Source: a candidate division WOR-3 bacterium (GTDB lineage: Bacteria > Hydrothermota > Tepidihabitantia > SM23-42). From it: a DNA stretch of 63,735 bases. Shown piece by piece: positions 31,616 through 36,298 of this stretch. The translations under genes and the position numbers were made by a program. The notes under the pieces are model-generated. The model did not search any database and was not told where the DNA came from. It saw only the letters and a program-made list of their open reading frames with translations. The stretch's first letter is position 1. Every line of letters begins with the position of its first letter. The stretch covers positions 1 to 63,735 of the forward strand of contig JAOUFJ010000014.1 in the NCBI GenBank assembly GCA_029858255.1. The letters are read 5' to 3'.

Positions 31616-34600
31616 ATGAAAAAGACCATACTCATCATCATAATAATAGTGACTTCACTCGGTATCGTTTCAGGAGTGAACCTGGACCGGCAGCCCGATG
31701 TCCTTCGCATCGAAGTTCCGATTGAGGACATGAAGGGAACGTTTGGCAGGATTGACGTCGATATTGTCGATATTAATGATGAAGTGATCGGCGATGCCTA
31801 TAAATATGTGTACATTGCCGCAGATTACTACTCAGTGACTTTCAAGGTAGAATTGAGAAAAGAACCGCGTGATAGGGATTTGCTGCGGGTCGCGGTGAAA
31901 TTCAAGGGGGAAGAGAACATTTATTCTTTATACCAACTCGAGGACCGGATGATAGTGCAGGTTCTGGGCCAGAACGAATTCATCCGCGGCATGCCGGTCA
32001 ATTACCGGATTATCGTGCACAATCAGAGAAATAGTGCTCCTATTGATGGCGCCCGCGTGAAAGTGACCATGAAGACCAGCGCAAAAGAAAAAGTGGTTTT
32101 CGAGGGCATGACAGACCGGGCTGGTTCGTGCGAGACGAATTTCAAGCTGCCTGAGGATGTGAATGAGGCAGATCTTCGTTTCGACGTAGCGTCCGCTTAT
32201 GGCAAGGATCAGTACGATGTGAGCGTCCGCGTATTGAGTGGTAACATGACCTACCTGGTGACCGACAAACCCGTGTATCAACCTGGTCAGACTATTCATA
32301 TGAGATCACTATCTCTGCGCCGTCCAGACCTGAACCCAGTGGATGGGGCCGTTGTTCTTTTCGAGGTTGAAGATAGCAAGGGCAACAAGGTCTACAAAGA
32401 GGAGATCAAAACAGATGACTTCGGTGTCGCGTATTCCAAATTCGTTCTTGCCGATGAAGTCAATTTCGGAGATTACACGATAAGAACAGTTCTCGAGAGC
32501 GATAAAGTGGAGAAGATAGTCAACGTCAAGAAATATGTCTTACCGAAGTTCAAAATCGAACTGACGACGGAGAAGGATTACTACATGCCAGGCGAGCAGA
32601 TTACGGGTGATATAGTGGCAGAATATTTTTTTGGCAAACCAGTTGTTGAAGGAAAAGTAAGGATCACAACCTACAAGTTCGACATCGGTTTCCAACAAGA
32701 ATCTGTGGTTGAGGGCCGTACCGACGAGGAAGGACGTTACCACTTCACCTACCGTTTGCCTGATTACTTCGTCGGCCAACCACTGGAACAGGGAGACGCC
32801 TTTGTACGCCTCGATGTTGAGGTAATCGACCCGGCGAATCACAGCGAAAAGATTTCAGCGAAGAAGAAGATTGTCGATGATGTCATTAGCCTTGCTGTCA
32901 TACCCGAGGGCGGTTTCTTGCGACCGAATCTCGAGAACCGTGTGTATGTTCTCGCAACATATCCTGATGGTACACCTTGTTTTGCCAAGATACAGTTGCT
33001 TGCTGGTACCCGGCGATTCGATGCTCGAACCGACGCCTATGGAATTGCCGAATTCAGTATAACCCCGCGTGAAGCGAAAACGCTGATCGAGGTCAAAGCA
33101 ACTGATGACAAGGGCGAGACCGCTGGTATTGAAAGAACTTTTGAATTGGATACGGCTCAGGATCAGCTCATAATAAGGATGGCTCGTGGCATATACAGTG
33201 TCGGTGAGGCACTCGATCTAACCTTCCTGACCACCAAGCGGTCAGGGCGCGTCTATTTTGACGTCATCAAAGACAACCAGACGGTCATGACAAAGTCCGT
33301 TGACATCAGGAATTACAGAGGACGGTACAAGTTGAACCTGACTCCGGAACTCAGCGGTTCGATCTGGCTACATGCATACATCGTTACCCGGGCAAGTGAT
33401 ATAGTGCGTGATACACGTTTCTGCTATGTCAATGCAGCCGATGACCTGCATATCAAAGTGAGCAAGAGCCAGGAAGAATATGCTCCAGGTCAGGACGGTG
33501 AGATAGTATTCACCGTGACCGGTCAGGATGGCCGCCCGAGGATCGCTGCCTTGTGCGTCGCGGTAGTCGATGAGGCGGTCTTCGCCGTGTCTGAACTTCA
33601 ACCGGGTCTGGAAAAGGTATACTTCAAACTTGAAGAAGAGATAATGAAGCCGCGTTATGAAATACACGGTTTCACACCGGTCAGCATTGTGGAGATGAAG
33701 GCGAGGGAAGCGCGGGCCGAGAATGTGATGTTTTCGACCCTCGTTCCCAGGGATCACTATCCGGTAAGTTACACCACGCCCCAACTCGTTACCGAGAAGA
33801 TACAGGAGGCGTTCTACACAAAACTAGAAGGGGTCAGATTCAAGATATATGAAGCGCAGACCGAGTATTTCCAGAAGCACGGCGAGTATCCGAGAAGCGA
33901 AGATGCCATTGGTTTGTTCATAAAAGAAGGCATGCTGCAGGAGGAGGAAATTCTTGATCCTTGGGGCAGGAGGTACCATGTACGCTCGCCTGAAGAATAT
34001 TTTCAGTACTTTACCATTGCTTCGGCCGGACCAGATGGCATTATCGACAATGATGATGATGTAAACGAAATGATGTGGGACGAGGGAATTCTGTTCGCCG
34101 AGGAGATGGATGCAATGATGCCGGCAGCGGCAGGTGTACACAGCCGTATGGCCTTGCAAGCCAAGAAATCGGAGACGAGCATCCAACAGCCGGAGAAGGA
34201 ACCGCGGGTGCGTGAATTCTTCCCGGAGACCTTCGTGTTTGAACCGGCGCTCATCACCGATTATGACGGTACGGCAAGGCTCAGTGTGACCATGCCTGAT
34301 GCAATAACGACCTGGCGCATAACGACGTTTGCCTCGTCTTCACGCGGTGAGCTGGGCTCGGTCCTCGCTCAGCTGCGGGTATTTCAGGATTTCTTTGTCG
34401 ACGTTGACCTACCGGTTGCTTTGACCGAAGGTGACGAGATCTCAATACCGGTTGCCCTCTACAACTATCTGCCCAGGGATCAGGAGATCAGATTGGTGCT
34501 GCAGAACGAGGATTGGTTCGATATCCTTGAAGGGTCCGAAATCGTCAGGCAGCTCGCGAGGGATGAGGTTAGCGTTGTGTATTTCCCGATCCGGGTCAAG

Positions 34601-36298
34601 AAACTGGGTTACCATTCGATTCTGGTGAGGGCCTACGGTGAGGTGAAATCTGACGCGATTAAACGCAACGTCGCCGTCCTGCCGGACGGGAAACTCTACG
34701 AAGGTATTGTCTCAGACCGGCTTATGGACCGGGTGGTGAAAAAGATCTCATTTCCTGCGAACTCGATCGAAGGAGCTAACTGGTTGGGTTTGAAGATTTT
34801 CCCGGGTATTTTTTCACAGGTCGTTGAGGGTCTCGATAAATTATTGGGGGTGCCGTTTGGCTGCTTTGAACAGACAACATCGGTTACCTATCCCAACATA
34901 CTTATCCTCAACTATCTCGGGCAGACCGGACAGATCAAGCCGGAGACCGAAATGACGGCTGAAGAATACATCAGTCTGGGTTATCAGCGCCTCGTGACGT
35001 TTGAAGTGCAGGGTGGAGGTTTTTCCTGGTTTGGTGATGCACCTGCGAACAAGATATTGACTGCTTATGGTTTGATGGAATTCAACGATATGGCTCGTGT
35101 ATACGACATTGACCAGCGAATCATAGACCGCACGGCTCAATGGTTGAAGAGCCAGCAGAACAAAGATGGTTCCTGGTCGCCAGATGCTCAGTACCTGCAT
35201 GCTGAATCATGGGGGAACATTCAGAAAAACGAGATTTTACCGACCGCGTATATCTGCTGGGCACTCGGTGAGATCGGTGAACGCGGTACTGCGGTGCAGA
35301 ATGGACTAAACTATTTAAAAAAGAACTTGAATGCTGTCAAGGATCCCTATATGCTTGCGCTCGTTGCGAATGCGTTCGTTTCCGTTGAACCGAATTCGGC
35401 CACCACGCTCGACATATTGAAACGCCTCATAGGCATGGCCAAAAGGGATCAAGATGCGGTCTACTGGGAATCGGGTATGGCTTCAATAACTTTCACACGC
35501 GGTATTGGGGCAGATATTGAGGCGACCGGACTCGCCGCGTACGCGTTGATAAGGTCCGGTAAGTACACGGACGTCGTAAGCGAGGCATTGACCTATCTGA
35601 TCCGCGCCAAGGACAAATCGGGTATATGGTACACAACGCAGGGCACGATCATCGCGTTGCGTGCGTTCGTTGCTGCATTGGGCAGCACGAGCGAGGATGT
35701 TGATGCTCAGCTGACAATTATTGTCAACGGGCAGAAAGTCTCGGAATTCAGGGTGGATAGAAGCAATGCTGATCTCATGCACCAGGTAGATTTGGGCGGA
35801 AATATCGGCGCTCAGAACACCATCGAGGTCGTTGTAAAAGGAGAAGGTAGTTTCCTCTACGAGATCGTGAGTAGGTACTACCTGCCGTGGGAAATCGTAC
35901 CCAAAGGTGACAATCCTCCTTTTGTTATCGACGTAAAGTATGACCGCACAGATCTCCGTATAAATGATATCGTCGATGTCGATGTCGATGCCAAATTGAC
36001 CCGGCCAGGTCGCGCCCAGATGGTGATGGTTGATCTTGGGATTCCTCCTGGTTTTGAGGTTCTGACGCCGACCCTCGATGAACTCGTGGGCAAGAAGATA
36101 CAGAAATACAGCATCACGCCGCGACAGATCATCATTTATCTTGATGAGGTTGTATTCGGTTCACCGGTCAAGATATCATATCAGCTCCAGGCAAAATACC
36201 CTATTCGTGCCAAAGTGCGGGCTTCACAGGTTTACGAATACTATAATATCGAAGATGGAGCATTCAAGCCGCCCATTGAAATACAAGTTGCCATGTAA
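31616..36298 (+). CDS. Bacterial alpha-2-macroglobulin with inserted pseudopilin-like segment
   Basis: The 1560-residue exported protein has a signal peptide (about 1-20) and then repeated MG domains. The complement-like thioester domain carries Cys1083-Phe-Glu-Gln1086 (PFGCFEQTTS), so the thioester is intact and the alpha/alpha barrel follows. Such proteins trap proteases in the periplasm or on the surface. At about 730-816, in the bait-region position, a segment ending in DPWG (781-784) and SAGPDGIIDNDDDV closely resembles the C-terminal domain of the type II secretion pseudopilin GspG. No lipobox is seen. The frequent partner gene for penicillin-binding protein 1C is absent. Confidence 0.9.
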   Translation: MKKTILIIIIIVTSLGIVSGVNLDRQPDVLRIEVPIEDMKGTFGRIDVDIVDINDEVIGDAYKYVYIAADYYSVTFKVELRKEPRDRDLLRVAVKFKGEENIYSLYQLEDRMIVQVLGQNEFIRGMPVNYRIIVHNQRNSAPIDGARVKVTMKTSAKEKVVFEGMTDRAGSCETNFKLPEDVNEADLRFDVASAYGKDQYDVSVRVLSGNMTYLVTDKPVYQPGQTIHMRSLSLRRPDLNPVDGAVVLFEVEDSKGNKVYKEEIKTDDFGVAYSKFVLADEVNFGDYTIRTVLESDKVEKIVNVKKYVLPKFKIELTTEKDYYMPGEQITGDIVAEYFFGKPVVEGKVRITTYKFDIGFQQESVVEGRTDEEGRYHFTYRLPDYFVGQPLEQGDAFVRLDVEVIDPANHSEKISAKKKIVDDVISLAVIPEGGFLRPNLENRVYVLATYPDGTPCFAKIQLLAGTRRFDARTDAYGIAEFSITPREAKTLIEVKATDDKGETAGIERTFELDTAQDQLIIRMARGIYSVGEALDLTFLTTKRSGRVYFDVIKDNQTVMTKSVDIRNYRGRYKLNLTPELSGSIWLHAYIVTRASDIVRDTRFCYVNAADDLHIKVSKSQEEYAPGQDGEIVFTVTGQDGRPRIAALCVAVVDEAVFAVSELQPGLEKVYFKLEEEIMKPRYEIHGFTPVSIVEMKAREARAENVMFSTLVPRDHYPVSYTTPQLVTEKIQEAFYTKLEGVRFKIYEAQTEYFQKHGEYPRSEDAIGLFIKEGMLQEEEILDPWGRRYHVRSPEEYFQYFTIASAGPDGIIDNDDDVNEMMWDEGILFAEEMDAMMPAAAGVHSRMALQAKKSETSIQQPEKEPRVREFFPETFVFEPALITDYDGTARLSVTMPDAITTWRITTFASSSRGELGSVLAQLRVFQDFFVDVDLPVALTEGDEISIPVALYNYLPRDQEIRLVLQNEDWFDILEGSEIVRQLARDEVSVVYFPIRVKKLGYHSILVRAYGEVKSDAIKRNVAVLPDGKLYEGIVSDRLMDRVVKKISFPANSIEGANWLGLKIFPGIFSQVVEGLDKLLGVPFGCFEQTTSVTYPNILILNYLGQTGQIKPETEMTAEEYISLGYQRLVTFEVQGGGFSWFGDAPANKILTAYGLMEFNDMARVYDIDQRIIDRTAQWLKSQQNKDGSWSPDAQYLHAESWGNIQKNEILPTAYICWALGEIGERGTAVQNGLNYLKKNLNAVKDPYMLALVANAFVSVEPNSATTLDILKRLIGMAKRDQDAVYWESGMASITFTRGIGADIEATGLAAYALIRSGKYTDVVSEALTYLIRAKDKSGIWYTTQGTIIALRAFVAALGSTSEDVDAQLTIIVNGQKVSEFRVDRSNADLMHQVDLGGNIGAQNTIEVVVKGEGSFLYEIVSRYYLPWEIVPKGDNPPFVIDVKYDRTDLRINDIVDVDVDAKLTRPGRAQMVMVDLGIPPGFEVLTPTLDELVGKKIQKYSITPRQIIIYLDEVVFGSPVKISYQLQAKYPIRAKVRASQVYEYYNIEDGAFKPPIEIQVAM

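What the first reader, a model, noticed from the sequence alone, without database searches (positions are those of the whole stretch)
33800..34070. Pseudopilin-type (GspG C-terminal) domain inserted into the alpha-2-macroglobulin bait region
Residues about 730-816 read as a GspG-like C-terminal domain: an amphipathic helix with YFQKHGEYPRSEDAIGLF, then DPWGRRYHV, then SAGPDGIIDNDDDV, the Asp-rich calcium-binding-like end. This segment lies between the MG domains and the thioester domain, where the protease bait loop is expected. If real, protease attack on a secretion-type domain would trigger the trap; it could also anchor the inhibitor to a pilus-like fibre. The thioester CFEQ is intact.
Basis: partly seen in the sequence, partly recalled or inferred. 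Interest (0 to 1): 0.65.

Follow-up and report, generated by a model that had tools for sequence, protein, structure and literature searches.

The report
Pseudopilin-like domain inside bacterial alpha-2-macroglobulin
A bacterial protease trap related to the animal inhibitor alpha-2-macroglobulin carries, exactly where complement C3 carries its anaphylatoxin, a folded calcium-site domain borrowed from a secretion-system pilin, and this arrangement is inherited in several bacterial phyla.

Summary
Residues 722-817 of a 1560-residue, CD109/A2M-like, thioester protein (window 31616-36298) form a GspG-type (T2SSG, PF08334) domain: above Pfam's cut-off alone, matched in 37 of 52 homologous slots, hits to GspG crystal sequences, and a confident AlphaFold domain whose best structural matches are GspG/EpsG/PulG. 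The calcium ligand positions are kept. It is not a stray insert: the same domain sits in the same slot in relatives from WOR-3, Armatimonadota, Poribacteria, Planctomycetota and, with an added CarboxypepD_reg domain, Acidobacteriota, and it diverges in step with the protein core.

The slot is the MG6 insert, the anaphylatoxin position of C3. The likely bait is not the domain but the disordered, fast-changing stretch just after it (818-863), followed by the invariant 'plug' R-x-F-F-P. I propose a folded, calcium-held stopper that keeps the plug threaded until the bait is cut. Pilus anchoring is not supported: no prepilin signal or hydrophobic N-helix.

In passing: a related clade in Chloroflexota has UGA exactly at the thioester cysteine, with a conserved hairpin after it: a candidate selenocysteine (selenoester) macroglobulin.

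The parts
31616..36298 (+). Alpha-2-macroglobulin-like protein, 1560 aa, eukaryote-like (CD109/A2M/TEP) type
   Evidence: ORF; Pfam MG2, MG3, MG4, BRD, A2M, TED, A2M_recep all over cut-off; best PDB sequence matches CD109 E 6.5e-72 and human A2M E 1e-66
31616..31675 (+). Likely signal peptide MKKTILIIIIIVTSLGIVSG (secreted/periplasmic)
   Evidence: sequence as read; inference, no predictor run
32534..32551 (+). MG2-MG3 linker motif YVLPKF (residues 307-312), wall of the plug channel in A2M proteins
   Evidence: position; YVLPK[FY] found in 52 of 58 long relatives; role from PMC9352918 and PMC9156758
33179..33586 (+). A2M_BRD Pfam match (residues 522-657; MG5 to first half of MG6)
   Evidence: E 7.6e-9
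33572..33667 (+). Conserved stretch incl. helix QPGLEKVYFKLEEEIMKPRYEIHG (residues 653-684), likely equivalent of the LNK helix
   Evidence: mean major-residue frequency 0.92 in WOR-3, 0.77 in all 52
33668..33778 (+). Upstream linker (residues 685-721), low-confidence in both models
   Evidence: pLDDT about 54-63 and mostly 33-69
33779..34066 (+). Pseudopilin-type (T2SSG/GspG) domain, residues 722-817: long helix 722-755, DPWG motif 781-784, small sheet, calcium-type loop
   Evidence: AlphaFold pLDDT mostly 85-98 alone and 78-91 in context; Foldseek top hits 3g20, 4lw9, 5o2y; Z 8.5 to 3g20 over 98 residues
34028..34060 (+). Calcium-type loop GPDGIIDNDDD (residues 805-815); ligand positions D807, N812, D815
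   Evidence: D807 50/52, T/N812 45/52, D815 49/52; ligands of 3g20 D117, T122, D125 from PMC3396595
34067..34204 (+). Proposed true bait region, residues 818-863: disordered, A/G/P/E/M-rich, length-variable
   Evidence: pLDDT 42-60, 27-35; WOR-3 major-residue frequency 0.46 against 0.67 for the T2SSG core; length 45-61 in WOR-3 against 96-98 for the domain
34205..34225 (+). Plug (BR-C / alpha'NT) RVREFFP, residues 864-870
   Evidence: R866, F869, P870, E871 invariant in 41 of 41 and 52 of 52 for R, F, P, E; role
34229..34498 (+). A2M Pfam match (residues 872-961)
   Evidence: E 1e-22
34811..35668 (+). Thioester (TED) domain, residues 1066-1351
   Evidence: E 3.4e-48
34862..34873 (+). Thioester motif CFEQ (C1083, Q1086)
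   Evidence: C and Q invariant in 41 of 41
36014..36262 (+). A2M receptor-binding (MG8) domain, residues 1467-1549
   Evidence: E 1.1e-11

Best explanation
This is a secreted thioester protease trap in which the MG6 insert, the place taken by the bait in animal A2M and by the anaphylatoxin domain in C3/C4/C5, contains three pieces in order: a folded GspG-type domain with a calcium-binding-type loop (722-817), a disordered bait (818-863) and the conserved plug (864-870). Shown here: domain identity, position, order, conservation, common descent with the rest of the protein. Inferred from the A2M family: a protease cuts the disordered bait, the plug slips back through the MG2-MG3-LNK channel, MG7/CUB/TED swing, and the exposed thioester bonds the protease. 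Proposed role of the domain: a rigid, calcium-held stopper on the N-terminal side of the bait. A folded 95-residue domain could not pass the channel, so the plug stays threaded unless the cut falls between domain and plug; the domain also spaces the bait outwards. It stays on the N-terminal fragment after the cut. No part in a pilus is needed.
For: Domain and fold. Whole protein is A2M-like by sequence and fold: (CD109 E 6.5e-58, A2ML1 4.1e-56). Calcium ligand positions conserved. Disordered, fast-changing stretch directly before an invariant plug. Channel motif YVLPKF kept. LNK and bait form one insert in MG6 and the anaphylatoxin replaces the bait in complement: PMC9156758; plug retraction as trigger: PMC9352918. 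Inherited, not sporadic: the tree needs few label changes for slot type; distances of domain and core correlate, r 0.82, 0 of 2000 permutations as high.
Against: No biochemistry: cleavage site, calcium binding, protease trapping and the stopper role are all untested. The calcium loop is degenerate in some Acidobacteriota members and lost in L027, yet those keep the A2M core, so the domain is not strictly needed. Foldseek E for the domain is modest (2e-3) and pTM of the models 0.51-0.55. Low pLDDT suggests but does not prove disorder. Related proteins fill the same slot with membrane segments, so the slot may simply tolerate many modules.
Confidence: 0.6

Rival explanations
1. Passive spacer: the domain only lengthens or positions the bait and could be any folded module; related clades use membrane segments or add CarboxypepD_reg domains.
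For: Variety of slot contents; degenerate domain in L027.
Against: Calcium-loop aspartates are kept in 94-96% and the DPWG aspartate in 100% of 52 sequences across phyla, more than spacing alone would need.
Confidence: 0.2
2. Anaphylatoxin-like release: proteases cut both flexible linkers and set the compact calcium domain free as a soluble signal or danger fragment, as C3a is freed from C3.
For: Same topological slot as ANA; flexible linkers on both sides.
Against: The upstream linker is much better conserved (0.79 against 0.46 in WOR-3) and of fixed length (37) in WOR-3, unlike a second bait; no receptor is known; ANA itself is unrelated in sequence.
Confidence: 0.1
3. The GspG domain is itself the bait: its cleavage is the trigger.
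For: It lies in the bait slot.
Against: High confidence, compact in prediction (pLDDT 78-98); the adjoining stretch has the marks of a bait.
Confidence: 0.06
4. Pilus or type II secretion docking: the GspG domain lets the inhibitor join or bind a pseudopilus, or be exported by a type II system.
For: GspG fold; a secretin is encoded in all five genomes tested.
Against: No prepilin signal or hydrophobic N-helix, which GspG needs to polymerise (general knowledge); sits mid-chain; below the GspG equivalog cut-off; the window genome has only a partial pilin-like match besides this one; an Acidobacteriota genome with a slot of this kind had no T2SSG match at E<=0.01.
Confidence: 0.04

Closest known systems
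GspG/EpsG/PulG major pseudopilin (T2SSG, PF08334; PDB 3g20, 3fu1, 1t92, 5o2y)
   Same: Soluble half: long helix, DPWG motif, small sheet, calcium loop with the same ligand spacing
   Different: No prepilin leader or hydrophobic helix; embedded in a 1560-aa inhibitor; far below the GspG equivalog score
Complement C3/C4/C5 with anaphylatoxin domain in the MG6 insert
   Same: A folded domain between LNK and the plug, with the trigger cut expected just after it
   Different: Domain is of pilin ancestry, not ANA; no anaphylatoxin or C-terminal netrin-type domain among the Pfam matches; no furin processing expected in bacteria
Human CD109 / A2M / A2ML1 and insect TEP1
   Same: Overall sequence and fold, thioester, YVLP channel and R-x-F-F-P plug
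   Different: These have a bait without a folded domain in front; here a folded domain precedes it; motif CFEQ rather than CGEQ
E. coli / Salmonella A2M (ECAM, YfhM type)
   Same: Bacterial thioester inhibitor; also matched by fold, lower (5a42 E 2.8e-42, 4u48 1.3e-41)
   Different: Not among the 60 best sequence matches; has additional N-terminal domains; no such domain in the bait slot described in the papers read
PERCAL calcium motif of bacterial animal-peroxidase domains (PMC3396595)
   Same: G-x-D-G-x-x-[GN]-[TN]-x-D-D loop; some relatives match it exactly, e.g. GPDGRWNTSDDL
   Different: Here the whole GspG domain is present, not just the eleven-residue loop

Membership tests
Alpha-2-macroglobulin superfamily | MG domains, TED and receptor-binding domain in the right order | tested here: met
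   Pfam matches all over cut-off; PDB sequence and fold matches to CD109, A2M, A2ML1
Alpha-2-macroglobulin superfamily | Thioester C-x-E-Q | tested here: met
   C1083-F-E-Q1086, invariant C and Q in 41 sequences
Alpha-2-macroglobulin superfamily | Protease-labile bait whose cleavage triggers trapping | not testable with these tools
   only indirect: low pLDDT and fast change of 818-863
T2SSG domain (PF08334) | Profile match above gathering score | tested here: met
   27 bits against 21; 25.7 bits in genome search
T2SSG domain (PF08334) | Pseudopilin fold | tested here: met
   predicted model: Foldseek ranks 1-5 all GspG; Z 8.5, 7.8, 7.8 to GspG, other pilins 5.5 or less
T2SSG domain (PF08334) | Calcium ligands D117, T122, D125 (3g20 numbering) | tested here: met
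   sequence only: D807, N812, D815 and their conservation; binding not measured
GspG, functional major pseudopilin (TIGR01710) | Prepilin signal and hydrophobic N-terminal helix | tested here: not met
   domain is mid-chain, preceded by linker and MG6; no such motif
GspG, functional major pseudopilin (TIGR01710) | Equivalog score of 88.85 bits | tested here: not met
   18.4 and 23.6 bits
Complement C3/C4/C5 | Anaphylatoxin domain in the MG6 insert | tested here: not met
   slot holds a T2SSG domain; no anaphylatoxin match in Pfam

The most novel reading that the evidence does not exclude
Bacteria evolved, independently of animal complement, a macroglobulin trap whose trigger slot holds a folded, calcium-locked module (here a domesticated pseudopilin), which gates triggering by calcium and by cut position and may be released like C3a. 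The slot is a general exchange site: T2SSG, T2SSG plus CarboxypepD_reg, or a multi-helix membrane segment in related clades.
Probability: 0.3. Interest if true: 0.75.

Novelty: new variant of a known kind. Interest (0 to 1): 0.58.

Why it matters
The MG6 insert is where A2M inhibitors and complement factors part ways: bait or anaphylatoxin. A large bacterial family, close to the animal proteins in sequence, that has put its own folded domain there gives an independent case of the C3-like layout, and a direct way to test what a folded module does to triggering. It also shows that bacterial A2M-like proteins are far more varied than the E. coli and Salmonella examples studied so far. The related clade with UGA at the thioester cysteine, if confirmed, would be a new use of selenocysteine: a protein selenoester.

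Tried and rejected
Chance match: rejected by independent T2SSG hits in 37 of 52 slots and none in 10 control slots. A first set of control references was mistyped and was redone from computed coordinates. A plain MG domain at 729-818: rejected (helix-rich, GspG fold). Link with a full type II system: the own genome has one secretin match but no full GspG; left as unsupported. The structural list for the short model covers only model residues 58-175, so the flanks were not tested for known folds there. Literature searches for A2M with T2SSG, Armatimonadetes or selenocysteine gave no report of either feature; subscription papers are not covered.

Full report
WHAT IS THERE. The ORF at 31616-36298 (+) encodes 1560 residues with MG2, MG3, MG4, BRD, A2M, TED and A2M_recep matches above cut-off. 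Against PDB sequences the best matches are CD109 (E 6.5e-72), human A2M (1e-66), A2ML1 and insect TEP1; a model of residues 440-1560 is closest to CD109, A2ML1 and A2M by Foldseek, with E. coli and Salmonella A2M lower. So this is an animal-like thioester macroglobulin in a bacterium. The nearest named relatives are labelled candidate division WOR-3, placed in Caldifarciminota. Neighbours are housekeeping genes: dnaG and rpoD upstream, ssb and rplI downstream.

THE DOMAIN. Residues 722-817 are a GspG-type domain. Pfam T2SSG scores 27 bits (cut-off 21) on a 138-aa piece, NCBIfam GspG 23.6 bits (equivalog cut-off 88.85), phmmer finds five GspG structures. An AlphaFold model of the slot (52 sequences) gives pLDDT mostly 85-98 over the domain; its five best Foldseek matches are GspG, EpsG and PulG and the second look gives Z 8.5 over 98 residues to 3g20 and 7.8 to two others, against 5.5 or less for other pilins. 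In the longer model the domain again stands out (pLDDT 78-91) between two weak stretches.

CALCIUM SITE. PMC3396595 reports that in 3g20 calcium is held by main-chain P114 and V119 and side chains D117, T122, D125, and defines the motif G-x-D-G-x-x-[GN]-[TN]-x-D-D. The window protein reads GPDGIIDNDDD; the equivalents D807, N812, D815 are D in 50, T/N in 45 and D in 49 of 52 sequences. Several relatives fit the motif exactly. Binding itself is not shown.

DISTRIBUTION AND DESCENT. Close relatives were found in all eight genomes of the genus that were held, and through most of the family and order, in 77 of 251 Armatimonadota, 22 of 247 Acidobacteriota and 1 of 3 Poribacteria genomes at E<=1e-80, and in a Gemmataceae contig. 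The Acidobacteriota count includes other A2M types. Slot sequences show the domain in all members of the window's family and order with a complete slot and in the Armatimonadota loci of this type, and in degenerate form in L027; in Acidobacteriota most keep it, followed by a CarboxypepD_reg domain. A tree of the C-terminal core needs few label changes (all five labels: 6, minimum 4; shuffled mean 23.9), with the domain-bearing rows together apart from the long-branched Gemmataceae row, and a membrane-segment group (Chloroflexota, a contig labelled Nanohalarchaeota) beside them (midpoint root and several low or open forks, so sister relations are tentative). Domain and core distances correlate (r 0.82). 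The domain thus probably came in once, or very few times, and was inherited with the protein.

HOW IT PROBABLY WORKS. In A2M proteins LNK and bait are one insert in MG6; in complement the bait is replaced by the anaphylatoxin domain (PMC9156758). The stretch after it, with conserved R and F, threads a channel of MG2, MG3, their linker and the first LNK helix, and slips back when the bait is cut; that triggers the collapse (PMC9352918). The window protein keeps a conserved LNK-like helix, the linker motif YVLPKF, and R866/F869/P870/E871 without exception in 41 sequences. Between domain and plug lies a 46-residue stretch with the lowest confidence of the whole model (27-35), the lowest conservation in the slot (0.46 in WOR-3) and variable length (45-61, against 96-98 for the domain), rich in A, G, P, E and M. 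This is the natural bait. The folded domain in front of it is in the anaphylatoxin place. My proposal, inferred and not shown, is that it acts as a stopper held folded by calcium, so that only a cut between it and the plug can release the trap. A passive spacer is the main rival.

Domain identity and place: right. Protease attack on the domain itself: unlikely. Pilus anchoring: not supported, as the polymerising N-helix and leader are absent and the genome has no full GspG, though a secretin is present.

A SIDE FINDING THAT MAY MATTER MORE. In some Chloroflexota relatives the thioester motif reads G-UGA-F-E-Q. Three loci came with the first scan; a search of the two orders found one in-frame TGA in every copy that covers the motif, and it is at that codon in all of them: six genomes (G061 with two copies, G062, G063, G967, G981, G984). 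The next relative, L077, has cysteine there. TGA is an ordinary stop elsewhere on these contigs. Directly downstream lies a hairpin TACGTC-G[GT]C-GACGTA; its codons +5 to +8 keep the same third base (G) in all seven distinct sequences, while synonymous codons nearby vary. tRNA-Sec is called by ARAGORN in G061 and G062 and SelB passes the profile cut-off in G061 and G063; in G062 only a fragment matches. The papers on prokaryotic selenoproteomes that could be read do not mention macroglobulins or thioesters. This suggests a selenocysteine at the thioester position, that is, a selenoester. It is a prediction from DNA only. These same proteins carry a membrane segment, not the GspG domain, in the bait slot.

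LIMITS. Genomes are mostly metagenome assemblies; phylum tallies are samples. Structure models have moderate pTM. No experiment was run, and subscription literature was not searched.

Noticed in passing
L045:9343-9345, L044:9349-9351, L049:468-470; also L167, L168, L170, L173, L174: In-frame TGA exactly at the thioester cysteine (G-UGA-FEQ) of Chloroflexota macroglobulins in six genomes (seven distinct sequences), followed by a conserved hairpin TACGTC-G[GT]C-GACGTA with frozen synonymous sites; tRNA-Sec and SelB found in several of these genomes. Candidate selenocysteine, hence selenoester, macroglobulin; no report found in the papers searched.
   Followed up: partly
L045/L076, L044, L077 (Chloroflexota) and L046 (contig labelled Nanohalarchaeota), bait slot: The same slot holds a hydrophobic multi-helix segment (about six likely membrane helices by eye in L045) in place of the GspG domain: an A2M with a membrane anchor in its bait insert.
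   Followed up: partly
L047, L048, L051, L052, L140-L146, L159 bait slots: Acidobacteriota members carry a CarboxypepD_reg domain after the GspG-like domain; ten members have Pfam matches.
   Followed up: partly
G000:C2:196852-198732 (selB) and G000:C2:200492-200581 (tRNA-Sec): The window's own genome has SelB and tRNA-Sec, so it probably makes selenoproteins; its macroglobulin keeps cysteine.
   Followed up: no
G000:C2:10330-12984 (-): A second, larger (open frame 1929 aa), distant macroglobulin in the same genome (23-25% identity), with counterparts across the family.
   Followed up: no
L104, 168-aa open frame (G467): A short protein with an N-terminal hydrophobic stretch and a GspG-like DPWG..GPNG segment but no prepilin motif: GspG-like domains occur in other non-pilin proteins.
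   Followed up: no
L079, L083, L085, L087 and others (Chloroflexota): Another Chloroflexota macroglobulin type with GCGEQN thioester motif and R-x-R-Q-[FY]-F-P-E-T plug, like animal A2M, with a plain 125-140 residue slot.
   Followed up: no
G542 (L117) and G522:C860:5288-7540: Two Armatimonadota copies also show one in-frame TGA. In L117 it lies outside the frame that covers the thioester; G522 was not examined. May be sequencing error.
   Followed up: no
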